Source: Streptomyces sp. SLBN-118 (GTDB taxonomy: Bacteria; Actinomycetota; Actinomycetes; Streptomycetales; Streptomycetaceae). Taken from it: a DNA stretch of 64,000 bases. Each line of letters opens with the position of its first letter. The stretch's first letter is position 1. The notes under the pieces are model-generated. The model was not told the origin of the DNA and did no database searches. It saw only the letters and a list, made by a program, of their open reading frames with translations. Below are positions 11,055-28,727 of this stretch, piece after piece. Position numbers and translations under genes: made by a program. The stretch is taken from contig NZ_VFNP01000002.1 in NCBI RefSeq assembly GCF_006715635.1, positions 434,001-498,000 of the forward strand. Direction: 5' to 3'.

Positions 11055-12071
11055 CTACTGCAATGCGTGTACGGCCGCCCGGAAGACAGCCGGGACACGG
11101 TGTGCCGCGGGAACGATCAGGCGGGCCGTGGCGGGATACCGGGCGGCTCGCAGCAGACCCTCGGTGAGCAGACGGTGACTCCGAGTCAGCCGCGCCCACT
11201 GCGATGGATAGTCCTGAGGGCGGCCGGCGGCCAGACACCGAACGGCGGCCGCGGCCGTCGCCATGGCCAGGGCGACACCCTCACCCGTCAGGGCATCGAC
11301 ATAGCCGGCCGCGTCACCGACGAGCAGGGTGCGCCCGTACCACTGGGTCCGTGCCCGCTGCCGCAAGGGCCCGGCGCCGCGTACCGAATGCGCCTCCCGG
11401 TCCCGGAGCACCTCGGCGAGTACGGGAAATCCCGCCAGGTGCTCCTCGTAGGAGCGACGATGGCGGCTGAGCACGGCGACCCCCACCAGGTTGTCACCGA
11501 CCGGCGTCACATACGCCTCACCGTGGCTGGACCAGTGGACTTCCACGAAGTCGGCCCACGGCGCGATGCAGTAGTGGCGCCGCAGGCCGTAGCGGCGATG
11601 TCCCGCGCCCCCGGGACGGTCCAGGCCGAGCCCACGGCGCAACGGTGAGTGAAGGCCGTCGGCGGCGATCAGCCAACGCGCCGTCAGCCCCGCAGCCGTG
11701 ACGCGGTCGTGGCTCTGGTGGACCTCCCCCACCTTGCCGGGCACGATCTTCACCCCGCTGTCCAGGGCCCGTTGATGGAGGGCGTCGTGCAGCTCCGTCC
11801 GCCGTACGCCGAGCCCTGGGCGGCCCCGGAACGTCGCCTCGGCGCGACGCACACCGTCGAGGTAGCGGATCCCGCGCAGGTCGCGGCCCGCCACCTCGAC
11901 ACCCAGCGAACGCAGCGCCGCCACACCGCTGGGCATGATCCCCTCGCCGCACGCCTTGTCGACGGGAGCGGCGCGCGGCTCGACGACCACGGCTTCCATC
12001 CCCGCCGCGGCAGTATGGATCGCGGCCGCCAGCCCGGCTGGGCCTCCGCCCGCGATCAGCACGTCGATCAC
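11055..12071 (-). CDS. FAD-dependent monooxygenase of a phenolic-lipid (srsC-like) operon
   Basis: 338 residues. N-terminal FAD fold DVLIAGGGPAGLAAAI, central LIAADGLHSPLRRGLGLD (DG motif) and GRTLLVGDAAGYVDALTGEG (GD motif) place it with geranylgeranyl-reductase/UbiH-type flavoproteins. It is the third gene of a set: type III PKS, ICMT-like methyltransferase, flavoprotein. Its GTG start at 12071 overlaps the methyltransferase stop (GTGA). Known precedent: in the S. griseus srsABC operon the flavoprotein SrsC hydroxylates methylated alkylresorcinols en route to alkylquinones. By position and family the same job is inferred here. A reductase role is the alternative. Confidence 0.8.
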   Translation of the reverse strand: MIDVLIAGGGPAGLAAAIHTAAAGMEAVVVEPRAAPVDKACGEGIMPSGVAALRSLGVEVAGRDLRGIRYLDGVRRAEATFRGRPGLGVRRTELHDALHQRALDSGVKIVPGKVGEVHQSHDRVTAAGLTARWLIAADGLHSPLRRGLGLDRPGGAGHRRYGLRRHYCIAPWADFVEVHWSSHGEAYVTPVGDNLVGVAVLSRHRRSYEEHLAGFPVLAEVLRDREAHSVRGAGPLRQRARTQWYGRTLLVGDAAGYVDALTGEGVALAMATAAAAVRCLAAGRPQDYPSQWARLTRSHRLLTEGLLRAARYPATARLIVPAAHRVPAVFRAAVHALQ

Positions 12072-12613
12072 GTCCGTACGCCCGCTGCCGTCGTTGCTGT
12101 GGCTGAAGTCGCGAGCGCCAGCGCCCCGTCCTCGCACCGGATGCGGACCGCCATGAGCACGGCGTTGAGCACCGTGAAGGCGAGGGCGGTCGCCCACGCG
12201 CCATGGACCAGTGGCAGGGCCAGCCCCTCGGCGGCGACCGCCACATAGTTCGGGTGGCGCAGCCATCGGTAGGGCCCGCCGGTCACCGGGGGAAGGCCCG
12301 GGACGACGATGACGCGGGTGTTCCACCGATGTCCGAGCGTACGGATGCACCACCACCGCAACGCCTGAGCGGCCACTACCACGGCCGCCATGGTCCAGCC
12401 GACCAGCGGCAGGAACGGGCGGCCGGCCAGCCGCACTTCGGCCAGAGCCCCCACCAGCAGGGCGGTGTGCAGAGCGACCATGGCCGGGTAGTGCCCTCTG
12501 CCGGTTTCGATGCCGCCGCGTGCCCGGCTCCAGCGGGTGTTGCGCAGCGCCACGGCGAGTTCGGCGAGTCGCTCGGCCGCGACGGCCAGCACCCCGGCGG
12601 TGTACCAGATCAC
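12068..12613 (-). CDS. Isoprenylcysteine carboxyl methyltransferase-type membrane methyltransferase (srsB-like)
   Basis: 181 residues with several hydrophobic helices (for example VGWTMAAVVVAAQALRWWCI and TALAFTVLNAVLMAV). The family signature is present: GHRWNTRVIVVPG, then VTGGPYRWLRHPNYVAVAAEG, the SAM-binding RHPNY segment. It lies 13 bp after the type III PKS gene and overlaps the flavoprotein by four bases, so all three are surely one operon. By analogy with SrsB it would O-methylate the alkylresorcinol made by the PKS in the membrane. Protein prenylcysteine methylation is not expected in bacteria. Confidence 0.82.
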   Translation of the reverse strand: MIWYTAGVLAVAAERLAELAVALRNTRWSRARGGIETGRGHYPAMVALHTALLVGALAEVRLAGRPFLPLVGWTMAAVVVAAQALRWWCIRTLGHRWNTRVIVVPGLPPVTGGPYRWLRHPNYVAVAAEGLALPLVHGAWATALAFTVLNAVLMAVRIRCEDGALALATSATATTAAGVRT

Positions 12614-12625
12614 GAATCCTCCGAA

Positions 12626-13681
12626 CTACCAGCGCAGCAGCACCAGTTCGCAGCAGAACCCCGGTCCCATGGCCAGCAGCAGACCGGGCGTTCCCGGTTC
12701 GGGGCGCCTGTGCACCAGGGTGTCCCGAAGGACATGCAGGACCGAGGACGAGGACAGGTTGCCTACGTCGGCGAGCGAGCGCCAGGTGACGTCGAGGGCG
12801 CCGTCGCGCAGGCAGAGGACGTCGGAGACGGCTTCCAGGACTTTGGGGCCTCCGGGATGGCATACCCAGTGGGCCACATCCTTCGGTTTGAGGCCGTGCT
12901 CCTCCAGGAATCCTTCGACGTCGTCGGCGAGGTACCGGCGGACGACATCGGGGATGGCAGCGTCGAGCACCACGCCGAAGCCGGAACTCCGGATGTCCCA
13001 TCCCATGAGGCCTTCGGTGTCCGGGTACATGCGACTGCGGGTGGCCACCACCTCGGGGCCGGCTGCCCGGTTCGCCTTTTCGCCGACGGCGACCACGGCT
13101 GCCGCACCGTCACCGAACAGCGCGGTCGCCACCAGGTTGGCGGGCCTCGTGTCGTTGCGCTGGAAGGTGAGGGAACACAGCTCGACGGACAGGAGCACCG
13201 CTACGTGGTCGGGCCGGCCGAGCAGGTAGTCGTGCAGCCTGGCCACACCGGCGGCCCCGGCGACGCAGCCCAGACCGAAGACCGGTAGCCGCTTCACGTC
13301 CGGCCGCAGGCCAAGACGCCCGACGAGCCGCGCGTCGACGGAGGGCGCGGCCACTCCCGTGACCGAGGTGAACATCAGCAGGTCGACATCGCTGGGCCGC
13401 AGCCCCGCCGTCCGCAGCGCACCGCGGACCACCTCGGCACCCAGGTTCGTGGCCGCGGTGATGAACACGTCGTTGGCTGCGCCAAGGCCGTCCAGCTCGC
13501 CGTAGCGATCCAGGGGCAGCACCGTATGCCGGGTGCGCACCCGCGCGTTCTCGTGAACGCGATCGAGGACACGCCGGTCGGCGCCCGGTGGCAGGCAGGT
13601 GCGAGCCACCATGTCGGTGATTTCGCGCTGGGTGTGGCGATGGGGCGCCAGGGTCCCGTGAACAGCCGCGATCCGGGTCAT
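12626..13681 (-). CDS. Type III polyketide synthase (alkylresorcinol synthase-like, srsA-like)
   Basis: 351 residues, normal for a chalcone-synthase-like homodimer. The catalytic triad is visible: Cys139 in VFGLGCVAGAAG, His275 in VCHPGGPK and Asn308 in LADVGNLSSSSVL; the terminal MGPGF loop is also present. Such enzymes condense a fatty acyl or aromatic starter with malonyl-CoA units. The downstream methyltransferase and flavoprotein point to an SrsA-type alkylresorcinol synthase; the 1,3,6,8-tetrahydroxynaphthalene synthase RppA is the main alternative, usually paired with a cytochrome P450 that is absent here. Start ATG 13681. Upstream, 38 bp away, is a perfect 18-bp palindrome. Confidence 0.9.
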   Translation of the reverse strand: MTRIAAVHGTLAPHRHTQREITDMVARTCLPPGADRRVLDRVHENARVRTRHTVLPLDRYGELDGLGAANDVFITAATNLGAEVVRGALRTAGLRPSDVDLLMFTSVTGVAAPSVDARLVGRLGLRPDVKRLPVFGLGCVAGAAGVARLHDYLLGRPDHVAVLLSVELCSLTFQRNDTRPANLVATALFGDGAAAVVAVGEKANRAAGPEVVATRSRMYPDTEGLMGWDIRSSGFGVVLDAAIPDVVRRYLADDVEGFLEEHGLKPKDVAHWVCHPGGPKVLEAVSDVLCLRDGALDVTWRSLADVGNLSSSSVLHVLRDTLVHRRPEPGTPGLLLAMGPGFCCELVLLRW

Positions 13682-13718
13682 CCGGCTTGCCGCCTTGGAG
13701 GCATCATGGGCCCATTCT

Positions 13719-13763
13719 TAGCCCGCGCGCGGGCTAGGAACACCTGAAGTAGCCCGTGCGGCT
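13719..13763. promoter_or_regulatory. Palindromic operator in the divergent PKS / ubiA gap
   Basis: Bases 13719-13736 are a perfect 18-bp palindrome (TAGCCCGCGCGCGGGCTA). A degenerate second copy starts at 13750 (TAGCCCGTGCGGCT), 31 bp or about three helical turns away. It sits between the divergent PKS operon and the UbiA gene and could control both. No regulator is encoded nearby. Confidence 0.6.
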
Positions 13764-13801
13764 GTCATGCTGGTGCGCGGCGGAGTGCCTACGATCACAC
13801 G

Positions 13802-14671
13802 ATGGGCACCATGGACCGGTCACCCGTATACGCCCCGGCCTCGTGGCCTCTGCGCCCCGCGGTCGGGCTCGCTCTGTCCTGTCATCCGGGGCCGGTGGTC
13901 GCGGTGACCGTCCTGGCCACCGGACTGGCCGTCAGCGCCCGCCTCGGCGGCCCCCGTTGCGCCCTGGTCGGCGCGGCCGTGCTGGCGGGACAGCTCTCGG
14001 TGGGCTGGTGCAACGACGCCTTCGACGCCGGGCGCGACGCCGCGGTCGGCCGCCGGGGGAAACCTGCGGCCGACGGTTCTGTGGGCCCCGGTGCGGTGTG
14101 GGCTGCGGCGTTCGCCGCCCTCCTGCTGTGTGTGCCGCTGTCGCTGGCCTGCGGCCCCGCCGCCGGTACGGTGCACCTCGCCGCGGTCGCGGCGGCATGG
14201 GCGTACAACGTGAAGCTCAAGGCGACGGTGCTGTCCTGGCTCCCGTATGCGATCGGATTCGGCAGCCTCCCGGCGGTCGTCACCCTGAGCATGCCCGGTC
14301 GTCCCTGGCCGGCGTGGTGGGCCGTCACGGCCGGAGCGCTCCTCGGCATCGCGGCCCATCTGGGCGACGTACTCCCGGACATCCCGGACGATCTGAGGAC
14401 CGGCGTACGCGGACTGCCGCACCGGCTGGGCATCCCCGGCACCCGGCTGCTGCTGCCGGTCCCCCTGGTGGCGGCATCGGCGGTCCTGGCCCTTGGGCCC
14501 CCGGGACCGCCGGGCGCATGGGGAGCCGCCACGCTGTTCGCGGCAGCGCCGACAGCGGCCGCGGGACTCGCACTTGGCCGGTACTGGCGCAAGGCGGCCT
14601 TCGCGGGGACGGTCGCGGTGGCGGCGGCCGATGTGGCACTGCTCCTGGCGCGCGGTACCGCCCTTTCATGA
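13802..14671 (+). CDS. UbiA-family prenyltransferase
   Basis: 289 residues, strongly hydrophobic with eight or nine likely membrane helices. Both Asp-rich motifs of intramembrane prenyltransferases are present: NDAFDAGRD (NDxxDxxxD type) and GDVLPDIPDD. These bind the magnesium-diphosphate of an isoprenoid donor. It is divergent from the phenolic-lipid operon and shares its 120-bp regulatory gap, so it may prenylate the phenolic product (inference); homologues act on chlorophyll, menaquinone or aromatic acids. ATG 13811 is an alternative start. Its stop is 18 bp from the convergent polX stop. Confidence 0.85.
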   Translation: MGTMDRSPVYAPASWPLRPAVGLALSCHPGPVVAVTVLATGLAVSARLGGPRCALVGAAVLAGQLSVGWCNDAFDAGRDAAVGRRGKPAADGSVGPGAVWAAAFAALLLCVPLSLACGPAAGTVHLAAVAAAWAYNVKLKATVLSWLPYAIGFGSLPAVVTLSMPGRPWPAWWAVTAGALLGIAAHLGDVLPDIPDDLRTGVRGLPHRLGIPGTRLLLPVPLVAASAVLALGPPGPPGAWGAATLFAAAPTAAAGLALGRYWRKAAFAGTVAVAAADVALLLARGTALS

Positions 14672-14689: not shown

Positions 14690-16423
14690 CTACGCCCCGG
14701 CACCACCCTTGCGCAGGAACCGGCGCAGCTTCGTGAGCGGCCATGTGTTGATGACGTCGTCCTTGGTCAGCCATCCGCGCTGCGCCGTGCCCACCCCGTA
14801 GCGCATGTAGGGCAGATGCGTGGTGGAGTGCGCGTCCGAGTTCACCGCGAACTTCACGCCGTACCGCTTCGCGCGCAGGATGTCCTCGTCGCAGAGGTCC
14901 AGACGCTCCGGATGCGCGTTGATCTCCAGAGCGGTGCCCGTCCTCGCGCAGGCTTCGAAGACCGCGTCGAAGTCGGCGTCGATGCCGGGGCGCTTGCCGA
15001 TCCGGCGCGTGGTGGGGTGGCCGATGACGGCCACGTACGGGTTCTCGCAGGCACGGACCAGCCGACGCGTGAGCGCCTGCCGGCTCTGGTTGAAATGTGA
15101 ATGGACGGAGGCCACGCACAGGTCGAAGCCCTCCAGGAAGTCGCCGGGCCAGTCGACCTCCCCGTCGGGACCGATGTTGAGCTCGGTGCCGTGCAGAAGC
15201 CGCATCCCATGGTGCTTCCGGTCGAGTTCGCGTACGCGTTCACGCTGCGCCAGGATCTTCTCCTCGGTCATGCGCTGCATGTACAGGTTCGGGGCGTGGT
15301 CGGTGATCGCGTAGTACGCGTAGCCGCGGCCGGCAGCGGCGGAAACCATGTCCTCCAGCGGGGCGAGGCCGTCGGTGAGGTCGGTGTGGGTGTGCAGGTC
15401 GCCCCGGATGTCGTTCTCGGCCAGCAGGTCGGGGAGTTCGCCGCGCAGTCCTGCCGCGATCTCCCCCCGGTCCTCACGCAGGGGCGGCGGAATCCAGGGC
15501 AGGCCGAGCCTGGCGTAGATGTCCTCCTCCGTGTCCGAGGTGATCAGCTTGCCGCTCTTGGCGTGGAAGAGCCCGTACTCGGAGAGCTTGAGCTTGTGGC
15601 GCACGGCGATCTCGCGGGTGCGGATGTTGTGCGCCTTGGATCCGGTGAAGTACTGCAGTCCCGCTCCCCAGGACTCCGGTGGGAGGACCCGCAGATCCAC
15701 CTGGAGGCCCTTGGTGGTACGGATGGACGTCTTCTTCTCGCCGTGCGCGATGACCTCGGCCGTGTGGGGAAGGCCGCTCAGAGCCTCCATGAAGGGTGCC
15801 GACCGCTCCGCGGCAACCAGGACGTCGATGTCACCGATCGTCTCCCTCATCCGGCGCAGTGATCCCGCGTACGTGCACCGTTCGCATCCGGGGATCCGTG
15901 ACAGGTCGGAGACGATCTGCTCCGCAATGTCCATGGCGGCGCCGATGAGGATGCGGCCGCCGCCGGCCTTCTGCATCAGGGAGATGCCGTGGAGGATGTT
16001 CTCCTCGGTCTTCTCGCCGAAGCCCTTCAGGTCGCGCAGTTTCTCCGCATGGATGGCGTCCAGCAGCTGGTCCACGGAGGAGATGCCCAGCTCCTCGTAA
16101 AGGACCATGGCCTTCTTGGGCCCGAGCATGGGGATGGTGATCAGCTCGCGGACGCCGGCGGGAATCGACGTCCGGGTCTCCTCGATGGTGGCGACTTGGC
16201 CGGATTGCAGATACTCGGCGATCTTGTCGGCGATCGACTTGCCGACGCTGGGGATGTCCCGCAGGGCCTTGGCGTCGAGCTTCGAGACGTCCGCGTGGTA
16301 GCCGCCGACGGCGCGGGCGGCCTTTTCGTAGGCGCGTGCCTTGAAGGCGTCGCCGCCACTGATCGCGATGAGGTCGGCGTACTCCTGGAGGAGTGACTCG
16401 ACCTCCTCGTTGGCTCGGACCAT
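14690..16423 (-). CDS. polX: Family X DNA polymerase with PHP domain
   Basis: 577 residues, the standard size of bacterial PolX. Order: helix-hairpin-helix region (about 1-130; IPSVGKSIADKI, ITIPMLGPKKA, LKGFGEKTEENIL), polymerase-beta-like nucleotidyltransferase core (about 160-310; GSLRRMRETIGDIDVLV with its DxD metal pair, and LQVDLRVLP giving the third Asp), and a C-terminal PHP phosphoesterase (about 335-570; GDLHTHTDLTDG, ITDHAPNLYM, GTELNIGPDG, NSDAHSTTHLPY). Family role: gap filling and 3' end trimming in base-excision or end-joining repair. All visible catalytic residues are intact. A Ku gene lies 24 kb away, so repair functions are not clustered. Confidence 0.93.
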   Translation of the reverse strand: MVRANEEVESLLQEYADLIAISGGDAFKARAYEKAARAVGGYHADVSKLDAKALRDIPSVGKSIADKIAEYLQSGQVATIEETRTSIPAGVRELITIPMLGPKKAMVLYEELGISSVDQLLDAIHAEKLRDLKGFGEKTEENILHGISLMQKAGGGRILIGAAMDIAEQIVSDLSRIPGCERCTYAGSLRRMRETIGDIDVLVAAERSAPFMEALSGLPHTAEVIAHGEKKTSIRTTKGLQVDLRVLPPESWGAGLQYFTGSKAHNIRTREIAVRHKLKLSEYGLFHAKSGKLITSDTEEDIYARLGLPWIPPPLREDRGEIAAGLRGELPDLLAENDIRGDLHTHTDLTDGLAPLEDMVSAAAGRGYAYYAITDHAPNLYMQRMTEEKILAQRERVRELDRKHHGMRLLHGTELNIGPDGEVDWPGDFLEGFDLCVASVHSHFNQSRQALTRRLVRACENPYVAVIGHPTTRRIGKRPGIDADFDAVFEACARTGTALEINAHPERLDLCDEDILRAKRYGVKFAVNSDAHSTTHLPYMRYGVGTAQRGWLTKDDVINTWPLTKLRRFLRKGGAGA

Positions 16424-16595
16424 ACCTTCATGGTGCTCCGGTACGGCCGGGGAGGCACTCCTGGGAGCGGCTGCATCGGCTCACCTGCCCGTACCCGAGG
16501 GATCGAACACAAGATCCGTTCATCTCATCTTACTTCTCGAGATGATCGCCTTGGATATCTGATGTCCATGAATACCCGATACACTGCCGCCGCAA

Positions 16596-18668
16596 GTGAC
16601 ACGGTTTTTCCAGGATGTGACCCGGGGGGGCGCCTTGGAGCCATTGGGACCTGACGACCCCGCCGTCGTGGGGCCGTACCGGCTGGTCGCCCAACTGGGC
16701 AGTGGCGGAATGGGCCGGGTGTACCTCGGGTACTCGCCGAGCGGTCGGCGGGTAGCGATCAAGGTCATCCGTCCGGACTACGTACAAGAGCCTGCCTTCC
16801 GCGAGCGCTTCGCCCGCGAGGTGATCGCCTCGCGCGCCGTGAGCGGGTTCTTCACGGCCGGTGTGGTCGACGCGGACCCCGAAGGAAGCCACCCGTGGCT
16901 CGCGACCGCGTATATTCCCGGCCCCTCGCTCCAACAAGCGGTGCAGAAAGGCGGCCCCTTCCCGGAGCGGCAGGTACGGGCGCTGGGTGCGGCGCTGGCG
17001 GAAGCTCTGACGGCGATTCACGGCGCGGCTCTGATCCACCGGGATCTCAAGCCGGCCAATGTGCTGCTGGCCGAGGACGGGCCGCGCGTGATCGACTTCG
17101 GGATCTCCCGGCTCGCCGAGCAGAGCGGACTGACGCTCACCGGCACCACGATCGGGTCTCCGGGCTACATGTCGCCCGAGCAGATCCAGGGGCTTCCGAT
17201 CGGACCCTCGTCCGACGTGTTCTCGCTCGGCTCGGTTCTGGCTTTCGCCGCGACCGGTGCCGGTCCCTTCGGTGAGGCGTCCGTACCGGCCCTGCTGTTC
17301 CGCGTGGTGCACGAAGAGCCCAAACTCCAGGCGGTCCCGCCGGGGTTGCGCGAGCTGATCAGCTGGTGCCTGGCCAAACGGCCCTCAGACCGCCCGGCCC
17401 TGACCGACCTGGTGCCAGCTCTGACCGGCGGCAGCTCCCCGGTGGATCTGCTCGGCGCGGGCTGGCTTCCCAAGCCCTGGCAGGACGACGACACCTCGGG
17501 GACGCTCGCTTTCCCGGAGATGCCGACGTCGACGTCGGCGGGCCACTCCCCGGTGCCCGAGCAGCAGCAGGGCCTGCCGGAGCCTTCCCCCGAACATCCC
17601 CCGCAGCCGTCGCCGGAGCGGCCGGTCAGCCGTCGCCGACTGCTGTACGCCGCGGCCGGTGCGCTGGGGGCCGGCGGGCTGGCAGTGGCCACCTGGGGCA
17701 TCACACGGGACCGCGAGCCGACCGCCGCGGGATCTCTGCGCTGGCGGTTCACCACCACCGGCACGGTGCTGTCCTACCCGAGGGTGGCCGGGGACCTGGT
17801 CTACGCGGCCAGCAACGACGGCACGCTGTACGCGCTGACCACCGCCGACGGGCGGCGACGATGGCAGCACACCACCGCCGCGGCCATCGGCTCCGCACCC
17901 ACCGTGCTGGGCGGCAGTGTGTACCTCGGCAGCGACGACCGCACGCTGTACTCCTTCGACGCCCGTTCGGGCAAGGTCCGTTGGCGGTTCACCACCGGGG
18001 GCATTGTCCATACGCCGGTCGTGACCGGGGGCGTCGCCTACGTCGGCAGCGCGGACCACCGGCTGTACGCCGTCGATGCGGCCGGCGGAAAGCGCCGGTG
18101 GGCCTTCGCCACGGACAACGACACCCACTCCCCCGCCGTGTCCGGCGAGACGGTGTACGTGGGCAGCAGCGATACCAGCCTCTACGCGGTGAACGCGAAC
18201 ACCGGCGAGAAGCGGTGGGCCTTCACCACGCGCGGGGCGGTGTCCGGCATCCCGACGGTAGCGGGTGGGCTTGTCTACTTCGGCAGCACCGACGGCGCTC
18301 TCTACGCGGTCGACGCGGGCGCAGGCAAGCTCGTCTGGCGGTTCGAGGGCGCCTCGGTCGGATCGAACCCGGCGGTCGCCAAGGGAGTGGTGTACGTGGG
18401 AGGCGGCAGAACACTGCACGCGCTGCACGCCAACACCGGCAAACCCCTGTGGGAGTTCACAGCCGCAGGAGATGTCCATGCGCCGGCCACAGCGGGCGCA
18501 GTCGTCTACGTGGGCAGCGACGACACCAAGCTCTACGCGGTGAACGCCGCTACAGGAGAGCAGTTGTGGGCGTACTCCGCCTCCGCTCCGGTACACGCAC
18601 CGGCCGTCACTCAGGACACGGTGTATTTCGGCAGCGACGACAACACGCTCTACGCCGTTCGCATCTGA
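16596..18668 (+). CDS. Membrane Ser/Thr protein kinase with C-terminal PQQ-type beta-propeller
   Basis: Up to 690 residues. Hanks-type kinase domain at about 28-290: P-loop LGSGGMGRVYLG, Lys56 in VAIKVI, catalytic Asp150 in IHRDLKPANVLL, DFG at 167 and GSPGYMSPEQ activation segment. A Pro-rich linker follows, then RRRLLYAAAGALGAGGLAVATW as the single membrane helix (about 348-369), then eight or so PQQ/quinoprotein-like blades with repeated VYVGS.D..LYAV..TGE..W units (about 380-690), outside the cell. Comparable to AfsK-like Streptomyces kinases. It precedes the GT2/GH26 pair by 98 bp on the same strand. The start is uncertain: GTG 16596 as given, or TTG 16635, where homologous kinases begin EPLGPDDP. 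Confidence 0.9.
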   Translation: MTRFFQDVTRGGALEPLGPDDPAVVGPYRLVAQLGSGGMGRVYLGYSPSGRRVAIKVIRPDYVQEPAFRERFAREVIASRAVSGFFTAGVVDADPEGSHPWLATAYIPGPSLQQAVQKGGPFPERQVRALGAALAEALTAIHGAALIHRDLKPANVLLAEDGPRVIDFGISRLAEQSGLTLTGTTIGSPGYMSPEQIQGLPIGPSSDVFSLGSVLAFAATGAGPFGEASVPALLFRVVHEEPKLQAVPPGLRELISWCLAKRPSDRPALTDLVPALTGGSSPVDLLGAGWLPKPWQDDDTSGTLAFPEMPTSTSAGHSPVPEQQQGLPEPSPEHPPQPSPERPVSRRRLLYAAAGALGAGGLAVATWGITRDREPTAAGSLRWRFTTTGTVLSYPRVAGDLVYAASNDGTLYALTTADGRRRWQHTTAAAIGSAPTVLGGSVYLGSDDRTLYSFDARSGKVRWRFTTGGIVHTPVVTGGVAYVGSADHRLYAVDAAGGKRRWAFATDNDTHSPAVSGETVYVGSSDTSLYAVNANTGEKRWAFTTRGAVSGIPTVAGGLVYFGSTDGALYAVDAGAGKLVWRFEGASVGSNPAVAKGVVYVGGGRTLHALHANTGKPLWEFTAAGDVHAPATAGAVVYVGSDDTKLYAVNAATGEQLWAYSASAPVHAPAVTQDTVYFGSDDNTLYAVRI

Positions 18669-18669
18669 G

Positions 18670-18688
18670 CCGGCCGGGAACCGGCCGG
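18670..18688 (+). terminator. Hairpin after the kinase gene
   Basis: Two copies of the self-complementary CCGGCCGG (18670-18677 and 18681-18688) separated by three bases form a tight hairpin two bases after the kinase stop codon. It may attenuate read-through into the synthase gene. Confidence 0.5.
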
Positions 18689-18766
18689 GCGACGCGAGCA
18701 GTCCTACTCAGCGCAGCTAGCGGCCTATTCACGTCTGAGTGATGCTGTTGGTCATCAAGGGGGGAA

Positions 18767-20515
18767 ATGTCCAGATATTCACGCCGCTTGGACCGGCGTG
18801 CCGAGAACAGGAATCGCCGCAACGCCTCGGCCGTCGCAGCCTACGCCCGTGCCTCCCGCGCATGCGGCCCGCTCGCCAACCCGGGCCGCCAGGTGAGGTA
18901 CTGCTCGTTGCTGCGACCGGGCCACCGGGTGTCGCTCACGGCTCTCACACTCGCCACAGCCCTGGCCGACATCGTCTTCATAGGCTGGCTGCTGCTGCCC
19001 GAACATGTGCCGGGCCCCGGGGTCACCGGCGTCGGCAACGGCTGGCTGTTCCTCGCCCGGACCGGGTTCTGCCTGGTCATCGTGGTCGAGACGATCAAAA
19101 TCGTGCAGGCGGTGGCGATCTGGGTGTTCGCCTTCCGGGCGAAGGACCCCATCCCCATGGTGCCGCCGCAGGGGCTCCGGGTCGCCATGCTGACCACCAT
19201 CGTGCCGTCCAAGGAGCCGATAGCCGTCGTACAGCGGACGCTGCGGGCCATGCTGGAGGTGGCGCGCTGGGACTGCACCGTGGACGTCTGGATCCTGGAC
19301 GAGGGCAATGACCCGGCCGTACGTCAGATGGCGGCCCGCCTGGGCGTCCACCACTTCAGCCGCAAGGACCGGCCGGAGTACAACCAGCCGTCCGGCCCTT
19401 TCCGCGCACGTACCAAGTCCGGAAACCACAACGCCTGGCGCGCGGAGCACGAGAACGCCTACGACGTGGTCGCCCAGATGGACCCCGACCATGTGCCGCT
19501 GCCGTGCTTCCTGGAGCGGACCCTGGGCTACTTCCACGACCCGGACACCGCGTTCGTGGTGGCCCCCCAGGTGTACGGCAACGCCTACGACAACTGGGTC
19601 GCCCACGGCGCGTCGGTACAGCAGTACCTGTTCAGCAGCATCGTCGAGCGGGGCGGCAACGGTCTGGACGCTCCCTTGCTGATCGGCACCAATCACCTCT
19701 ACCGGGTCGCCGCGTGGCAGCAGATCGGCGGCTACCAGGACTCGATCATCGAGGACCATCTGACCAGCATGAGGATCCACGGCACGGTCAATCCCTCGAC
19801 CGGAAACGGCTGGAAGGGCGTGTACACCCCCGACGTCGTGGCCGTGGGCGAGGGCCCGACCACCTGGACCGATTACTTCAACCAGCAGCGGCGCTGGGCC
19901 TATGGCATCTGGGAGATCAAACTCAACCCCCGGCTGAGGCAGGGCATCCGGCTCCGCACCCGCCAGCGGCTGCTGTACGACCTGGTTCAGTTCTACTACC
20001 CGAGCGTCGCCATGAGCCTGACGCTCGGCACCCTCGCCACCGCCCTGTACATGCTGCTCGGAGTCTCCTCCATCCAACTGCCAGGGCTCCCCTGGTTCCT
20101 GCTGTGGTCCGCGGGCATGGGGGGCTCATTCGCCCTCTGGCTGTGGCTGCGCCGGTTCAACCTCGCCGAGCACGAGAGGCGGGAGATCGGTATGGCGGGC
20201 ATCCTGCTGTCGCTCTTCGCCGGGCCTGTCTACATCGCCGCCGCGGCGAACGCCCTGCTGCGCCGGCCGCTGGCGTACGTGGTTACTGCCAAGGGCGAGC
20301 TGCGCAGCTCGGAGTCCCTGCGCACCTTCCGACTGCACCTGATGTGGGCTCTGCTGGCCGGGTGTCTGCTGATCGTCAGCTTCCGCAACCACCATGACTA
20401 CACGGCCCTGCGGATCTGGACGCTGCTGGCTCTTGCGGCCGGCTCGGCCCCGCCGCTGCTCGCTCTGGCGGAGGACGTCTCCACCCGCTTGCGCACCGCG
20501 AGGGCAGAGCGGTGA
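18767..20515 (+). CDS. Processive GT2 polysaccharide synthase (cellulose-synthase-like)
   Basis: 582 residues. Two membrane helices near 55-77 and 92-120, a cytosolic GT2 domain (about 135-385) and four or so C-terminal helices. The processive-synthase motifs are visible in order: WILDEGND (UDP-binding Asp), QMDPDHVP (DxD-type), the acceptor-site IIEDHLTS (catalytic base Asp) and FNQQRRWAYG (QxxRW). It thus resembles BcsA/CslA and hyaluronan-type synthases, extruding a beta-linked polymer; there is no PilZ domain. ATG 18767 has a strong AAGGGGGGAA site. The stop overlaps the GH26 start, so the two proteins are coupled. The sugar donor cannot be read from sequence. Confidence 0.88.
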   Translation: MSRYSRRLDRRAENRNRRNASAVAAYARASRACGPLANPGRQVRYCSLLRPGHRVSLTALTLATALADIVFIGWLLLPEHVPGPGVTGVGNGWLFLARTGFCLVIVVETIKIVQAVAIWVFAFRAKDPIPMVPPQGLRVAMLTTIVPSKEPIAVVQRTLRAMLEVARWDCTVDVWILDEGNDPAVRQMAARLGVHHFSRKDRPEYNQPSGPFRARTKSGNHNAWRAEHENAYDVVAQMDPDHVPLPCFLERTLGYFHDPDTAFVVAPQVYGNAYDNWVAHGASVQQYLFSSIVERGGNGLDAPLLIGTNHLYRVAAWQQIGGYQDSIIEDHLTSMRIHGTVNPSTGNGWKGVYTPDVVAVGEGPTTWTDYFNQQRRWAYGIWEIKLNPRLRQGIRLRTRQRLLYDLVQFYYPSVAMSLTLGTLATALYMLLGVSSIQLPGLPWFLLWSAGMGGSFALWLWLRRFNLAEHERREIGMAGILLSLFAGPVYIAAAANALLRRPLAYVVTAKGELRSSESLRTFRLHLMWALLAGCLLIVSFRNHHDYTALRIWTLLALAAGSAPPLLALAEDVSTRLRTARAER

Positions 20516-21633
20516 GGATCACCACGCCACGGGTGCTCGCGGTGCTGTGTGCCGCTCTCCTGTCCTGGTACACCTTCCAGGTGGCACCGGGCCTGGCGGA
20601 CCGCGAACGCCGAGCGGCAGCCGCACGCGCCGACGCCGTGCTGCCCCCGACGACCGTCCTGCCCGACGAGAAGCCTGCGCCGCACCGCCCCTCCCAGCGG
20701 CCCGCGGTCGCTTTCCCCGCCGTGGGAAAGGCGTTCATCGGCGTCTTCACGTCGGCGGGCGCCCATGACTTCACCGAAGGGGCCGGCTTCGCCCGGCAGA
20801 CCGGGCATCGCCCGCAGGTGTACGAGTTCTCGGCCGACTGGGAGAGCGATCGGTTCGACGCCGAGGCCATCAACCGTGTCGCCAGGCGAGGCATGCTTCC
20901 CCTGGTCGCCTGGGAGCCCTGGGACCACAAGGCCGAGGCCGACGAACCCACGCTGCGTGGCGAGCAGTCCGAGTACCGGCTGTCGAGAATCATTCACGGC
21001 TCCTTCGACCGGTACATCAGGTCATGGGCGCGGGGCATCAAGTCGCTCCGCTACCCGGTGGCCATCCGCCTCGCCCACGAGATGAACGGCTACTGGTACC
21101 CCTGGTGCGAGCAGTCCAACGGCAACCGCCGCGGGGAGTACGTGCGGGCGTGGCGTCACGTCCACAAGATCTTTGACGCGGTGGGAGCACATAACGCCCT
21201 GTGGGTGTGGAGCCCCAACGTCAGCTACACCAACTCGACGCCGCTCAACCGGCTCTATCCGGGAGACGAGTACGTGGACTGGGTGGGCCTGTCCGGCTAC
21301 TACGGCACGGTGGGCAAGGAGAACTACCAGTCGTTCGACCGCCTCTTCATGCCGACGAGGACCGAGATACGGCGCTTCACCCGCAGACCGCTCGTCATCA
21401 CCGAACTCGGCGCCACGGACGCCGCCGGACGCAAAGCAGAGTGGATCACCGAGATGTTCCGTTCACTGCCTCGCCACGGCGACATCATCGGCATCATCTG
21501 GTACCAGGCGGTCAAGGAGATCGACTGGCGCGTGGGCACGAACCGCGCATCCTCGGCCGCCTTCACCGCCGGGGCGTCGGCGAGCCGGTACCAGCAGCCG
21601 TGGCAGCCGTATATGACGCCGCGCGTGCGATGA
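20512..21633 (+). CDS. Secreted or membrane-anchored GH26 glycanase
   Basis: 373 residues. N-terminal signal or anchor (VLAVLCAALLSWYTFQVAPG), a low-complexity linker to about residue 65, then a GH26 clan-A barrel: acid/base Glu190 in IRLAHEMNGYWYPW and nucleophile Glu298 in PLVITELGATD. Known GH26 activities are endo-beta-mannanase, beta-1,3-1,4-glucanase and xylanase. The GTG start overlaps the synthase stop (GTGA), so it is made together with the GT2 protein and likely trims or releases the polymer that the synthase makes, as BcsZ does for cellulose (inference). Substrate unknown. Confidence 0.87.
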   Translation: MRITTPRVLAVLCAALLSWYTFQVAPGLADRERRAAAARADAVLPPTTVLPDEKPAPHRPSQRPAVAFPAVGKAFIGVFTSAGAHDFTEGAGFARQTGHRPQVYEFSADWESDRFDAEAINRVARRGMLPLVAWEPWDHKAEADEPTLRGEQSEYRLSRIIHGSFDRYIRSWARGIKSLRYPVAIRLAHEMNGYWYPWCEQSNGNRRGEYVRAWRHVHKIFDAVGAHNALWVWSPNVSYTNSTPLNRLYPGDEYVDWVGLSGYYGTVGKENYQSFDRLFMPTRTEIRRFTRRPLVITELGATDAAGRKAEWITEMFRSLPRHGDIIGIIWYQAVKEIDWRVGTNRASSAAFTAGASASRYQQPWQPYMTPRVR

Positions 21634-21649
21634 ACCCTGGCGCGACGGT

Positions 21650-21673
21650 GGGTGGGGGCGTGAGCTCCCACCC
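21650..21673 (+). terminator. Hairpin after the synthase/glycanase operon
   Basis: GGGTGGG (21650-21656) and CCCACCC (21667-21673) pair across ten bases and are followed by GTTTCTC, 17 bp beyond the GH26 stop. Confidence 0.55.
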
Positions 21674-21875
21674 GTTTCTCCCCCACCGGGCCCTCCCGTG
21701 GCACCCAGAGGTCCGGGCCGGACGACGGATGTTGACCTCGATCCGGTGACCGGCCTGGTCACCGGCGGTTTCCCGGCCGCTCCCCCGACAGGCAACAGGA
21801 AACCCGTCGACCTTGGTGCGCACCGACGACAGGCTGAAGTCGTCAGCACGTACCAAGACCTACCAAGGGGGAATC

Positions 21876-22238
21876 GTGCGCAAGATCAAGATGATGAGGA
21901 CCGTCGCGGCGCTCGCGCTCGCTGTCGGCACGATGACGACCGTCACCGCAACCCAGGCCCAGGCGGCGAGCAGCCACGGGTGCCCGTCCGGGTACGTCTG
22001 CATGTACCCGGGTGCGGGCTGGAACAACGACCGTCCGACCCACACGTACTACACCTACGGGGCCCACAACCTCAGCAACATGTACGGGACATACCGCATC
22101 TACAACAACCAGACCGGCGGTGCGACCATGCGGACGTGCACCGGGTACAACGGCACGGGCTGTCAGGGCTACCTGCCGGCCGGCTGGTACATCGACAAGG
22201 ACATGACGCCGATCAACTCGATCACGCTCCAGCCTTAG
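21876..22238 (+). CDS. Secreted peptidase-inhibitor I36-like protein
   Basis: 120 residues from GTG 21876, which follows an AAGGGGG site. Signal peptide with basic MRKIKMMR start, hydrophobic core AALALAVGTMTTVTA and an AQAASS cleavage region. The mature part CPSGYVCMYPGAGWNND resembles the peptidase inhibitor family I36 (SMI-type) of Streptomyces, with Cys residues that probably pair (CPSGYVC, CTGYNGTGC). The role is likely an extracellular protease inhibitor, but many family members are uncharacterised. Stand-alone gene framed by hairpins. Confidence 0.75.
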   Translation: MRKIKMMRTVAALALAVGTMTTVTATQAQAASSHGCPSGYVCMYPGAGWNNDRPTHTYYTYGAHNLSNMYGTYRIYNNQTGGATMRTCTGYNGTGCQGYLPAGWYIDKDMTPINSITLQP

Positions 22239-26345: not shown

Positions 26346-27041
26346 TCAGGTTCCGGGCTTGCGGCCGTAGACGAAGACGTCGTCGCCGTTGCGGAGCATG
26401 CTCCAGTACTTGGCGGCGTCACTCTTGGTCATGTTCACGCAGCCGTGCGAGCCGGGCGGTGCCCAGACGCTGATGCCGACGGAGTGGAAGGCCTGGCCCC
26501 CGTCGAAGAACTGGCTGTACGGCATCGGCACGTTGTACAGGTTCGACACGTGGTCGATGTCCCGCAGGTAGATCTTCTTCACGCCGGTGCGGGTCTCGTA
26601 ACCGTCGCGGCCGGTACGCACCGGCACCGGTCCGTACACCAGCTTGCTGCCGTCCTGGATCCAACTGAGCTGGAGCGTGAGGTCGACGCAGGCGATGCGC
26701 CCCTTGTTCACCGGGCACTTGCCTGCCTTGTTCGGCGTCTTCCCGACGGCCTTCTGCCGGTTCATCAGATCCATGACGCCCCAGGTGACGGGACCCGCGA
26801 AACCGGCGTTCGGACTGATCGAATGCTTCGTCTGGAAGGCCTGGATCGCCTTGCAGTCGGCGGCGGACTGCTTTCCGTCGACCGGGCGACCGAGGAACTT
26901 CTCGACCTGCTTCTGGTACGGCCCTGTCTGCGTCGTGCATGACGCCGCCTGAGCGGTCGTGCTCCCCAGGGCCAGAGTGAGCGGGGTCACCAGTGCGGTG
27001 ATCCCGAGTGCGACGACTCCTCGTCGGCGTATGTCCCCCAC
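26346..27041 (-). CDS. Secreted L,D-transpeptidase (YkuD) with peptidoglycan-binding-like front
   Basis: 231 residues from GTG 27041, chosen because AAGGAG lies nine bases upstream and a signal peptide (ALGITALVTPLTLALGSTTAQA) follows directly. Residues about 38-95 form a PG_binding_1-like helical unit (AIQAFQTKHSISPNAGFAGPVTWGVM). The YkuD catalytic motif is intact: His186 in AFHSVGI and GSHGCVN with His199 and nucleophile Cys201. It would make 3-3 peptidoglycan cross-links in the wall. Convergent with the ATP-grasp gene; no partner penicillin-binding gene near. Confidence 0.88.
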   Translation of the reverse strand: MGDIRRRGVVALGITALVTPLTLALGSTTAQAASCTTQTGPYQKQVEKFLGRPVDGKQSAADCKAIQAFQTKHSISPNAGFAGPVTWGVMDLMNRQKAVGKTPNKAGKCPVNKGRIACVDLTLQLSWIQDGSKLVYGPVPVRTGRDGYETRTGVKKIYLRDIDHVSNLYNVPMPYSQFFDGGQAFHSVGISVWAPPGSHGCVNMTKSDAAKYWSMLRNGDDVFVYGRKPGT

Positions 27042-27425
27042 GTCAGTCGGCTCCTTGTCCGTACGTAGTCCGAGTTCCGCCTGGTAGACGGTCGTGGGGA
27101 CCCGGTAGTTGCACGCGACAGCAAGACGGTTTCGTAACGCCCGCCCAGACATGAGTCCGTGGGGGACGCGGCCGCCGACGGCTCCGGTCGGCCTCGGCTT
27201 GACGGCCCGAGGCCTCCGGCGTAGTCCGGGATTAGGGGGCGGATCGGGAGTTCGCTCGCCGGGACCGTAGGCGTGTTCGAGTTCGACACGACCGAGGACG
27301 GAAAGGTGACGGGCAGGGTCTTCCAGTGGAAGTAGCCCGCGGCTCCCGCCGTGGGCGCGGGTCACGACGGCGGCAAGCCTGCCCCAACCCCGCGGCGGCC
27401 GCGACGCGTGGCGGTCGTCGATGCG
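27042..27425. other. Intergenic, 384 bp; possible plus-strand gene tail
   Basis: No full gene. On the plus strand 27273-27335 encodes VFEFDTTEDGKVTGRVFQWK followed by TAG, which reads like the last strands of a lost secreted or beta-lactamase-fold protein; no start or upstream homology is visible. The rest presumably holds the L,D-transpeptidase promoter. Confidence 0.3.
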
Positions 27426-28727
27426 TCACCAGGGCACATCGTCCAGAAGCAGCCCCGTCTCGGGCCGCCGGCCGTCGACCAGCGACTGTTCGGTCCACAT
27501 GACCTTCCCGGTGGGCGTGTATCTGGTGCCCCACCGTGCGGCGAACTGGGAGACAAGGAACAGGCCGCGCCCGCCCTCGTCCGTGGTGGCCGCCCGGCGC
27601 AGGTGCGGAGAGGTGCTGCTGCCGTCGGACACCTCGCAGATCAGACGGCGCTCGTGCAGCAGCCGCACATGGATCGGTTCGGACCCGTAGCGGATCGCGT
27701 TGGTGATCAGTTCGCTCAGCATCAGCTCGGTCGTGAAGCCGATCCCCGCCAGACCCCATGTCTCCAGCTGACGTCCGCACGCGGCACGGAGGGGAGCGAC
27801 CGCCGCGGGGTCGAAGGGGACGTCCCAGTCGGCGACCCTGGCGGAGTCCAGCAGGCGGGTCCGGGCCACGAGCAGCGCGATGTCGTCCCTGCGGTGCGGG
27901 GGCTCCATGGCGGTGAACACGGCCTGGTACGTCTCCTCCGGCGTACGGTTCGCGTCCTGGGCCAGGGTCGCGCCGAGAAGGCTGAGTCCGGTTTCGATGT
28001 CGCGGCCGGGGTGTTCGATGAGTCCGTCGGTGTAGAGAACGAGCCGGCTGCCCTCGGTCAGCTGCAGTTCGGCGGTCTCGACGGGCAGTGCGCCGAGGCC
28101 AAGCGGTGGGCTGATGGGCACCTCGGGGAAGTCCACCGTGCCGTCGGGGTGGACCAGCGCGGGGGCCAGATGCCCCGCCGTGGCTACGCTGCACATGCCG
28201 GAAACCGGATCGTAGATGGCGTACAGGCAGGTGGCTCCGGTGATGCCTTCGCCGTCGCTGTCCTCGTCCTGGTCGATACGGGAGACGAGTTCGTCGATGT
28301 GTCCAAGGATCTCGTCCGGTGGCAGGTCGAGGGCGGAGAAGTTGTGGACCGCGGTACGCAGACGGCCCATGGTGGCCGCGGCGTGCAGACCATGGCCGAC
28401 CACGTCACCGACGACCAGGGCGACCCGGGCTCCGGGCAGCGGGATGACGTCGAACCAGTCGCCCCCCACCCCGGCCTGCGCGGGCAGATAGCGGTAGGCG
28501 ACCTCCAGGGCGTTCTGCTCGGGCAGGACGCGAGGCAGCAGGCTGCGCTGGAGGGTGACCGCCATGGCGTGTTCGCGCGTGAACCGGCGAGCGTTGTCGA
28601 TGGCTACGGCGGCACGGGCGGCCAGCTCCTCGGCGAAGGAAAGATCCTCCTCCTCGAAGCGTTCCGGACGCTCCGCGCGCCAGAAGTTGGCCATGCCCAG
28701 GACGACGCCACGAGCCTGCAACGGCAC
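27426..28727 (-). CDS. N-terminally truncated GAF-SpoIIE phosphatase-HATPase protein
   Basis: 433 residues from GTG 28727. It starts inside a GAF domain (VVLGMANFWRAERPERF), then has a SpoIIE phosphatase (GGDWFDVIPLPGARVALVVGD, TAGHLAPALV, LVLYTDGLIEHPG) and an RsbW-like ATPase (SELITNAIRYGSEP, DEGGRGLFLVSQF). It is closely similar in architecture to the 476-2905 gene but lacks PAS domains and the first half of GAF. GAF-like coding (CVHSLVTVPLQ) continues about 25 bases upstream of the GTG and then stops at the MerR-type promoter of the ABC exporter. So the 5' end was probably lost in a rearrangement. Expression from a new promoter is possible but unproven; it may be a pseudogene. Confidence 0.75.
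   Translation of the reverse strand: MPLQARGVVLGMANFWRAERPERFEEEDLSFAEELAARAAVAIDNARRFTREHAMAVTLQRSLLPRVLPEQNALEVAYRYLPAQAGVGGDWFDVIPLPGARVALVVGDVVGHGLHAAATMGRLRTAVHNFSALDLPPDEILGHIDELVSRIDQDEDSDGEGITGATCLYAIYDPVSGMCSVATAGHLAPALVHPDGTVDFPEVPISPPLGLGALPVETAELQLTEGSRLVLYTDGLIEHPGRDIETGLSLLGATLAQDANRTPEETYQAVFTAMEPPHRRDDIALLVARTRLLDSARVADWDVPFDPAAVAPLRAACGRQLETWGLAGIGFTTELMLSELITNAIRYGSEPIHVRLLHERRLICEVSDGSSTSPHLRRAATTDEGGRGLFLVSQFAARWGTRYTPTGKVMWTEQSLVDGRRPETGLLLDDVPW

What the first reader, a model, noticed from the sequence alone, without database searches (positions are those of the whole stretch)
18767..21633. Coupled GT2 polysaccharide synthase and GH26 glycanase behind a beta-propeller kinase
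A processive membrane synthase with DxD/ED/QxxRW motifs overlaps by four bases a secreted GH26 enzyme with both catalytic Glu residues, and a membrane Ser/Thr kinase with an extracellular PQQ propeller lies 98 bp upstream. Known synthase/hydrolase pairs (BcsA-BcsZ, PgaC-PgaB) make and trim exopolysaccharides, but a GT2 coupled to a mannanase-type GH26, with a kinase neighbour, would be a distinct system. The polymer and sugar are unknown.
Basis: partly seen in the sequence, partly recalled or inferred. Interest (0 to 1): 0.8.

Follow-up and report, generated by a model that had tools for sequence, protein, structure and literature searches.

The report
Actinomycete glucan synthase coupled to lichenase-type hydrolase
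A Streptomyces gene pair encodes a sister enzyme of the known Streptomyces cellulose synthase and, overlapping it by four bases, an apparently membrane-anchored enzyme related to lichenases, so the bacterium may make and trim a glucan that is not plain cellulose.

Summary
A GT2 synthase (18767-20515) overlaps a GH26 (20512-21633) by four bases; an AfsK-like kinase with a PQQ propeller ends 98 bp upstream. The coupling is real: 46 of 51 GH26 relatives found by peptide patterns have a GT2 within 552 bp; 31 of 32 loci of this clade keep a 1- or 4-base overlap; two relatives are fusions. The three non-own GT2 orthologues found from GT2 alone have GH26 next door. More distant GH26 often stand alone (12 of 19).

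Two parts of the interpretation change. (1) The GH26 is not mannanase-type: its profile scores 220 bits against the lichenase CtLic26A, 72 against the best mannanase. (2) The GT2 belongs to a clade sister to Streptomyces CslA, the synthase of the CslA-GlxA cellulose complex; GH26 occupies GlxA's place. Beside the invariant catalytic residues its motifs differ from CslA (TED to IED, 19 of 19 rows).

Best reading: a non-cellulose beta-glucan, possibly (1,3;1,4)-linked, extruded and trimmed by the pair. ATPase-propeller proteins (kinase or Hsp70 plus PQQ or Kelch) recur beside these modules and may sense the polymer. A rhizobial GT2-GH26 operon (APS) is known, so this is a new variant of a known kind. 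No activity was tested.

The parts
16596..18668 (+). AfsK-like Ser/Thr kinase, internal membrane segment after an RRR motif (about residues 345-367), then a PQQ beta-propeller; proposed sensor/regulator
   Evidence: Pkinase 139 bits and PQQ_2 192 bits; NCBIfam AfsK model 461 bits, under its cut-off of 1300, so not AfsK itself; VAIK, HRDL and DFG motifs and the RRR-hydrophobic segment; upstream on the same strand in L021-L028 and L032 and in L140
18669..18766 (+). 98-bp gap between kinase and synthase; G-rich ribosome-binding-like sequence just before the ATG
   Evidence: Sequence; no terminator-like or sigma-70-type promoter-like site on the + strand in 16400-21900, which does not prove co-transcription
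18767..20515 (+). Processive GT2 synthase of a clade sister to Streptomyces CslA; several membrane segments
   Evidence: Pfam PF13632/PF13641; best PDB matches BcsA, 70 bits; tree; clade-specific motif positions; seven hydrophobic windows, two of them overlapping
20512..20515 (+). GTGA overlap: start of GH26 inside the stop of GT2
   Evidence: a start codon overlapping the GT2 stop by 1 or 4 bases is available in 31 of 32 relatives of this clade
20512..21633 (+). Lichenase-type GH26 with one N-terminal hydrophobic anchor or signal (residues 8-26); catalytic E190 and E298
   Evidence: PF02156; CtLic26A best PDB hit at 116 bits against 43 for the best mannanase; profile 220 against 72 bits; 33% identity over 227 residues; the only GH26 found in the genome

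Best explanation
The pair is a synthase/hydrolase module of the CslA branch of GT2 enzymes. The GT2 polymerises a beta-glucan from a nucleotide sugar (most likely UDP-glucose) and extrudes it through its membrane channel. The GH26, probably made by translational coupling and held at the outer face by its N-terminal anchor, cuts or trims the emerging chain. Because the GH26 is lichenase-type and the GT2's donor and acceptor motifs differ from the cellulose synthase CslA, the polymer is probably not plain cellulose; mixed (1,3;1,4)-beta-glucan is the best single guess. The kinase's outer propeller probably reads the polymer or its fragments and its inner kinase domain tunes the synthase. Shown here by sequence: gene structure, conservation, fusions, phylogeny and motif shifts. 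Inferred: donor, linkage, trimming and regulation. My own odds: functional coupling 0.93; beta-glucan 0.65; mixed linkage 0.4; kinase regulates the pair 0.5.
For: GT2 lies beside GH26 in 46 of 51 loci gathered with GH26 alone; 2 ORFs carry both domains. Converse: the three non-own GT2 orthologues from GT2-only searches all have GH26 next; one of them (L073) is probably the genome of L025, its contig having the same length. GH26 profile: CtLic26A 220 bits, best mannanase 72. Tyr replaces the -1-subsite Phe of mannanases in 28 of 28 GH26 rows of A1 (mannanase residue from PMC6556568, section 16). GT2 clade 100/99, sister to CslA (root outside assumed); CslA-GlxA makes cellulose in vitro (PMC11022532, abstract and passages). 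In the own genome the CslA and GlxA ORFs overlap in the same way (L102: 8245 against 8248). The rhizobial GT2-GH26 operon, linked to an arabinose-containing polymer, carries a GH26 nearer to beta-1,3-xylanase (26.5 bits), as expected if the hydrolase matches the polymer. CslA needs phosphorylation at T17 for beta-glucan (PMC13432765, section 3.4).
Against: Substrate is extrapolated over 33% identity from a lichenase branch that held only two sequences in a 2019 tree (PMC6556568, passages). The presumed mixed-linkage synthase BgsA keeps TED and does not group with this clade, so the motif shift is not a known mark of mixed linkage; some of the shifted positions vary anyway (BcsA also has VTAK and an Ala after QxxRW). 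Of 19 other GH26 loci from this order and class (L002-L020, about 1.5 kb of flank) only 7 show a GT2 hit in a BLAST search. Two Arthrobacter relatives have no GT2 nearby (L063, L064). In a second-type relative (L009) the HE motif and the Tyr are both changed. Source names of 23 of 120 listed homologues say mannanase or mannosidase. The clade is rare: 2 of 246 Streptomyces genomes including this one. The kinase is not beside the pair in Kitasatospora-type and Micromonospora loci. No structure model could be run.
Confidence: 0.55

Rival explanations
1. The product is ordinary beta-1,4-glucan (cellulose); GH26 merely plays the part that GH6 or GlxA plays beside CslA.
For: Sister of CslA, which makes cellulose in vitro; the six distinct PDB sequences matched by the GT2 are all cellulose synthases; other cellulose operons carry a hydrolase of an unrelated family (GH8 in Bcs, GH5 in Ccs; PMC7710045 abstract); catalytic residues D.D, ED and Q..RW are all kept.
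Against: Positions beside the catalytic residues differ between the two clades, each fixed within its own (19 of 19 against 22 of 22 rows, two of the 22 being identical); the genome already has a CslA-GlxA-GH6 locus; CtLic26A is recalled as acting on mixed-linkage glucan rather than cellulose.
Confidence: 0.25
2. The polymer is built of another sugar (pentose, mannose, glucomannan or N-acetyl sugar), as in the rhizobial APS system.
For: ApsS with its GH26 is the next branch out in the tree (99/96); the shift beside the donor motifs (IED, DPD, GNH) could mean a new donor; a GT-C-like (PMT_2) gene accompanies the module in Micromonospora, Pseudofrankia and the second GT2-GH26 type.
Against: No gene for an unusual nucleotide sugar was seen beside the pair, unlike APS with its UDP-glucuronate decarboxylase and epimerase; the GH26 is lichenase-like, ApsE is not.
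Confidence: 0.2
3. The GH26 is a catabolic or defensive enzyme for plant or lichen glucans that lies next to the synthase by chance.
For: Some relatives stand alone (L063, L064 in Arthrobacter; Acetoanaerobium L127; a Pseudarthrobacter plasmid; 12 of 19 loci without a GT2 hit in their short flanks).
Against: Conserved overlap, fusions, adjacency in 46 of 51 loci and at least four GT2 groups with GH26.
Confidence: 0.04
4. GH26 is not a trimmer but a chain-release or transfer enzyme that hands the glucan to another carrier (wall, lipid, protein).
For: GH26 enzymes are retaining hydrolases (recalled), so transfer is chemically possible; a likely membrane anchor; two or more GH26 copies in a row in Micromonospora.
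Against: I saw no acceptor or carrier gene conserved across the loci (clusters); nothing here tests transfer.
Confidence: 0.12

Closest known systems
CslA-GlxA cellulose synthase complex of Streptomyces (with a GH6, CslZ)
   Same: Sister clade of the GT2; second gene overlaps the synthase by four bases; the partner has an N-terminal membrane anchor and an outer part (GlxA: PMC11022532 passages; GH26: one hydrophobic segment); the same genome carries both modules
   Different: Partner is a GH26, not the copper oxidase GlxA; TED, DTD, GTNN and FVVTPKG become IED, DPD, GTNH and YxVTAKG; kinase-propeller gene upstream
Rhizobial APS operon (cuxR; uxs1-uxe-apsS-apsH1-apsE-apsH2)
   Same: GT2 34-35% identical to the window's over about half its length and a GH26 in one operon
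   Different: DUF995 genes and UDP-pentose genes are present; its GH26 is another subfamily (best PDB hit a beta-1,3-xylanase); gene names assigned by order from PMC7902896 (passages)
BcsA-BcsZ and Clostridial CcsA-CcsZ
   Same: Processive synthase plus cognate hydrolase; the hydrolase's specificity was used to infer the polymer (PMC7710045 abstract)
   Different: No BcsB-like gene seen beside the pair, no PilZ match, hydrolase of GH26 instead of GH8 or GH5
CtLic26A (CelH) of Clostridium thermocellum
   Same: Closest solved GH26: 33% identity over 227 residues, both catalytic Glu residues aligned
   Different: CtLic26A is recalled as a cellulosomal degrader of plant glucan; here the enzyme is tied to a synthase
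WpsE of Actinoplanes missouriensis (wps-1 cluster)
   Same: A GH26 within a polysaccharide-making cluster of an actinomycete (PMC13390465, abstract and passages)
   Different: Wzx/Wzy-type cluster, not a processive synthase pair; its sequence was not compared here

Membership tests
GH26 | Pfam Glyco_hydro_26 over its curated cut-off; catalytic Glu pair | tested here: met
   64.8 bits against 20.2; E190 and E298
GH26 beta-mannanase branches A/B | Phe in the -1 subsite six residues after the acid/base Glu (F207 of BoMan26B, at least 97% conserved in branches A and B) | tested here: not met
   Tyr196, invariant in 28 of 28 rows of A1; residue list from PMC6556568 section 16
GH26 lichenase branch (CtLic26A) | Nearest relative of solved structure by sequence | tested here: met
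   220 against 72 bits for the next distinct enzyme
GH26 lichenase branch (CtLic26A) | Cleaves (1,3;1,4)-beta-glucan | not testable with these tools
   No assay
Streptomyces CslA | Lies inside the CslA clade | tested here: not met
   Separate clades, 100/99 (19 rows) and 100/100 (22 rows)
Streptomyces CslA | TED motif and GlxA partner | tested here: not met
   IED in 19 of 19 rows; GH26 in the partner's place
Bcs cellulose synthase (BcsA) | NCBIfam equivalog TIGR03030 over cut-off; PilZ domain | tested here: not met
   77.9 bits against 699.1; no PilZ among Pfam matches up to E 0.001
APS synthase system | Operon with UDP-pentose genes and ApsE-type GH26 | tested here: not met
   The genes next to the pair are a kinase and a small protein without Pfam match; GH26 subfamily differs
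AfsK | NCBIfam NF053615 over cut-off | tested here: not met
   461 bits against 1300
Mixed-linkage glucan synthase (BgsA, RiGT2) | Groups with BgsA | tested here: not met
   The presumed BgsA row groups with BcsA and an Agrobacterium synthase; RiGT2 was not fetched, so not tested

The most novel reading that the evidence does not exclude
A new actinobacterial system for a non-cellulose (probably mixed-linkage) beta-glucan: a CslA-sister synthase whose partner slot is taken by a lichenase-type GH26, run by a family of membrane-spanning sensors that join a cytosolic ATPase (Ser/Thr kinase or Hsp70) to an outer propeller (PQQ or Kelch) that reads the polymer. If so, Streptomyces and relatives made a second surface glucan by swapping the partner and re-tuning the active site of one synthase stock.
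Probability: 0.28. Interest if true: 0.75.

Novelty: new variant of a known kind. Interest (0 to 1): 0.55.

Why it matters
CslA-GlxA shows that Streptomyces can build cellulose, and CslA glucan lies at hyphal tips. A sister synthase with a different hydrolase partner, in the same genome, makes it possible to ask what residues switch the product of a processive glucan synthase and why a bacterium needs two. Placing the hydrolase correctly also points to the right substrate for the first assay, where some databases now say mannanase (23 of the 120 homologues listed). The recurring ATPase-propeller neighbours suggest a testable route by which an outside polymer could control its own synthase.

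Tried and rejected
Mannanase reading: rejected on profile scores and the -1-subsite residue. Chance neighbours: rejected for this clade. GH26 fused to GT-C (PMT_2) in the second GT2-GH26 type: suspected from long open frames, dropped because Pfam found no GH26 in those four ORFs; I read them as adjacent genes in different frames. Fusions of GT2 and GH26 in Streptomyces: suspected from the long frames, dropped because the two hits are in different frames; of the loci examined only L067 and L069 are fused. Ancestral GH26 partner for ApsS, this clade and CslA together: not supported, since ApsE is a different GH26 subfamily. Riboswitch or other Rfam RNA in the window: none at gathering score. Clostridial link: the Acetoanaerobium GH26 has no GT2 among the ORFs of L127. 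A paper on a CslA-like GT2 with GH26 in actinomycetes: none seen. Those are listings (15 of 43, 9 of 9, 14 of 14, 20 of 31, 12 of 25, 15 of 304, 10 of 43 and 6 of 6 papers), read as titles and abstract starts, apart from the papers named in this report. Structure prediction of GH26 and GT2 never ran.

Limits of my own calls. The 51 loci were found through short exact peptide patterns, so relatives without them are missed. Gene picking is a crude GC-frame method. The tree used 18 of the 32 clade loci plus the window, chosen by hand, is rooted at the midpoint for drawing only, and warns of long branches meeting, ApsS with CslA among them. In one search the row L127acet was read in a wrong frame and is ignored, and the row named L138_2nd is the second GH26 of L139. 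In one search the pattern search caught the wrong spot or nothing in some rows outside the two compared clades. The CslA rows called noGlxA were seen with only 1.5 kb of flank in 6 of 8 cases, and two of the 22 CslA rows are the same gene. BgsA is an unannotated ORF of pSymB whose name I inferred from recalled gene numbering. In one search my hydropathy window found no clear membrane segment in the Hsp70-type proteins of L029, L033 and L036.
Full report
What is there. The window is bases 434001-498000 of contig C2 of a 7.79 Mb, two-contig genome of Streptomyces type (the genus is inferred from the named closest relatives). On the + strand lie an AfsK-like kinase with PQQ repeats (16596-18668), a GT2 (18767-20515) and a GH26 (20512-21633), with gaps of 98 bp and minus 4 bp. 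Domain matches are well above cut-off for all three. The kinase falls short of the AfsK model (461 against 1300 bits). The gene before the kinase is a divergent PolX-type DNA polymerase; downstream come a small secreted-looking protein and an NlpC/P60 protein, which together with PolX match only in the nearest relative L021 among the 51 loci. No terminator-like site lies on the + strand of 16400-21900. The genome has one GH26 by both a protein and a Pfam search, this one.

Is the coupling more than chance? A pattern scan of the genome collection with the GH26 alone gave 51 loci. With a GT2 profile (score over 100), 46 of 51 have a GT2 in the locus, its domain at most 552 bp from the GH26 match; 36 are on the same strand, 8 divergent, 2 fused. 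The five without are L048 (match starts at base 93 of a contig end), L061 (6.5-kb contig), L071 (9.2-kb contig that begins inside another GH26) and two Arthrobacter loci with several kb of flank, L063 and L064. In 32 loci the GT2 is 60% or more identical to the window's (18 of them are in the tree); 31 of these have a GH26 start codon overlapping the GT2 stop by 1 or 4 bases (TTG in L049) and L053 overlaps by 13. L067 and L069, from Acidimicrobiales metagenome assemblies, carry GT2 and GH26 domains in one open frame of 908 and 951 codons. The converse test starts from GT2: the orthologue is found in 2 of 246 Streptomyces genomes at E far below the CslA-like level, 2 of 396 across the phylum and 2 of 293 in the order, each count including this genome; the three other orthologues all have GH26 directly downstream (L073; L133 and L134). 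L073 lies on a contig of the same length as that of L025 and is probably the same genome. The pair is therefore rare but tightly kept. Against a general rule, more distant GH26 of the order and class are coupled less often: of the 19 non-own loci only 7 show a GT2 hit in flanks of about 1.5 kb.

Which GH26? Against the sequences of all solved structures the window's protein scores 116 bits with CtLic26A (endoglucanase H of C. thermocellum) and 43 with the best mannanase; the profile of 28 sequences scores 220 against 72; a Kitasatospora member 141 against 46 for the next GH26 entry. Identity to the CtLic26A stretch is 33% over 227 residues and both catalytic Glu align, at chain positions 109 and 222. 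A phenylalanine in the -1 subsite that is at least 97% conserved in both mannanase branches (PMC6556568, section 16) is tyrosine here and in all 28 rows of A1; in L009, a member of the second GT2-GH26 type that is not in A1, this place and the HE motif are changed. The same paper keeps lichenases on a branch of their own, with two sequences (passages). So the enzyme is lichenase-type by descent; its activity is untested. Source names of the 120 listed homologues mannanase or mannosidase (my count).

Which GT2? 204 of 246 Streptomyces genomes have a match at E 1e-40 or better, and apart from this genome's own pair and L073 the listed matches are 40-47% identical (a capped list). In this genome that protein sits at C2:2876454-2878115, followed with a 4-base overlap by GlxA and then, on the other strand, by a GH6 gene, which is the CslA-GlxA-CslZ locus (CslZ as a name recalled). 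CslA-GlxA makes cellulose in vitro (PMC11022532; abstract and passages). In a tree of 71 GT2 rows the GH26-coupled clade (19 rows) is one group (100/99), next to 22 CslA rows (100/100; joint node 95/89); the rhizobial ApsS rows come next (99/96), while BcsA and the presumed BgsA lie elsewhere (drawn with a midpoint root, with a warning about long branches). Thus the window's module looks like the CslA module with GH26 in GlxA's seat. The catalytic residues are shared, but the two clades differ beside them, each fixed within itself: DPDHVP against DTDHxP, GT[NG]HLYR against GTxN, IEDHLTS against TEDMATG, QQ[RK]RW against QQ[LMT]RWS, and [YF]xVTAKG against FVVTPKG (19 of 19 and 22 of 22 rows). 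Some of these, such as VTAK, also occur in BcsA; the isoleucine of IED and the proline of DPD were not seen in the other groups where the pattern caught the motif. This argues for a different donor or linkage without proving it. Other GT2 groups are coupled to GH26 as well: ApsS, an Acidimicrobiales group, the fusions and a second type in Streptomyces and others, so the coupling arose or was kept several times.

A known precedent. Plasmids of Sinorhizobium medicae and Phyllobacterium carry, in order, an AraC-type or other helix-turn-helix regulator, UDP-glucuronate decarboxylase, GalE-like epimerase, GT2, DUF995, GH26, DUF995. This is the order of the S. [quoted passage not shown] By order ApsE is the GH26; its best solved relative is a beta-1,3-xylanase at 26.5 bits. 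So a GT2-GH26 operon is not new in itself, and the kind of GH26 may follow the kind of polymer. In clostridia the specificity of the partner hydrolase was used in the same way to infer cellulose (PMC7710045, abstract).

The kinase and its stand-ins. Kinase-PQQ genes precede the pair in Streptomyces loci L021-L026, in the three Frankiaceae loci and in L140; the other four loci named Streptomyces (L030, L039, L044, L048) are of the Kitasatospora type or cut off. In the seven Dactylosporangium loci the gene directly after GH26 is an Hsp70-like protein; in L034 Pfam shows Kelch repeats behind it, the others are judged by homology, which in L035 covers only the Hsp70 part. In the fusion loci the convergent neighbour is Hsp70-PQQ (L067) or kinase-PQQ (L069), and in L139 a kinase-Kelch protein lies beside a second GH26. 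Three Acidimicrobiales loci (L058-L060) have a two-component-type kinase directly after GH26 (Pfam on L058 only; the others by homology). Such genes are not very common: PQQ_2 gives 18 matches, in at least 7 places by my reading of a capped list, in this 7.8 Mb genome, and the Hsp70-Kelch query gives 19 to 38 matches in the five Dactylosporangium genomes searched. Adjacency by chance is then roughly 1% or less per lineage (my estimate, not a computed test, and the category was chosen after seeing the loci). Against this, seven Kitasatospora-type loci (L030, L037, L039, L041, L044, L050, L051) have a DUF2510 gene and the 8 Micromonospora loci a GT-C-like PMT_2 gene upstream of the GT2 (two and one of each group scanned with Pfam), so the sensor is not obligatory. 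In S. albus, CslA needs phosphorylation at T17 for beta-glucan, with PknB probably acting indirectly (PMC13432765, section 3.4); that makes kinase control of a sister enzyme plausible, not shown.

How it most likely works. UDP-glucose (inferred) enters GT2 at the inner face; the chain leaves through the channel; GH26, probably anchored by residues 8-26 and made in step with GT2 through the GTGA overlap, trims or releases it; the propeller reports on the polymer. Mixed linkage is the best single guess because the hydrolase is lichenase-type and the synthase has left the CslA motif set, but plain cellulose or another sugar is not excluded. The pair is a new variant of a known kind: synthase plus cognate hydrolase, in the CslA branch.

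Noticed in passing
L067:6183-8906 and L069:6003-8855: GT2 and GH26 domains in one polypeptide in Acidimicrobiales assemblies, each next to a convergent ATPase-propeller gene.
   Followed up: partly
L029, L031, L033-L036, L042 (directly after GH26): Hsp70-like ATPase, in L034 joined to a Kelch propeller; Dactylosporangium genomes hold many relatives (19-38 matches each in the five searched). I know of no named function (recalled).
   Followed up: partly
window 16596-18668, about residue 345; also L021-L028 and L032: The kinase's internal membrane segment follows an R-R-R or R-R motif that looks like a twin-arginine signal placed inside the protein; export route untested.
   Followed up: no
L003, L006-L011, L065, L068, L135-L138: A second, distant GT2 type coupled to GH26 (lichenase-type in L003), followed by a PMT_2-type membrane glycosyltransferase in L135-L138; L065 and L068 also carry one. 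In L065 the cluster also holds three GlxA-like genes.
   Followed up: partly
L038, L040, L043, L045-L047, L049, L052: The Micromonospora loci carry two or more GH26 copies in a row.
   Followed up: no
L053 and L139: Second GH26 copies on the opposite strand, in L053 with a second GT2 of its own.
   Followed up: no
window 11055-14671: Type III polyketide synthase (12626-13681, -), ICMT-type methyltransferase, FAD oxidoreductase and a UbiA prenyltransferase side by side: a likely small polyketide cluster.
   Followed up: no
window 26346-27365 and 27426-28727: An L,D-transpeptidase and a SpoIIE-type phosphatase with an HATPase domain, some 5-7 kb after the pair.
   Followed up: no
L111 and L112 (Streptomyces genomes G189 and G093): CslA-like synthases with no GlxA hit in the fetched stretch, L111 with a GH6 gene: a possible further partner variant of the CslA branch.
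   Followed up: no
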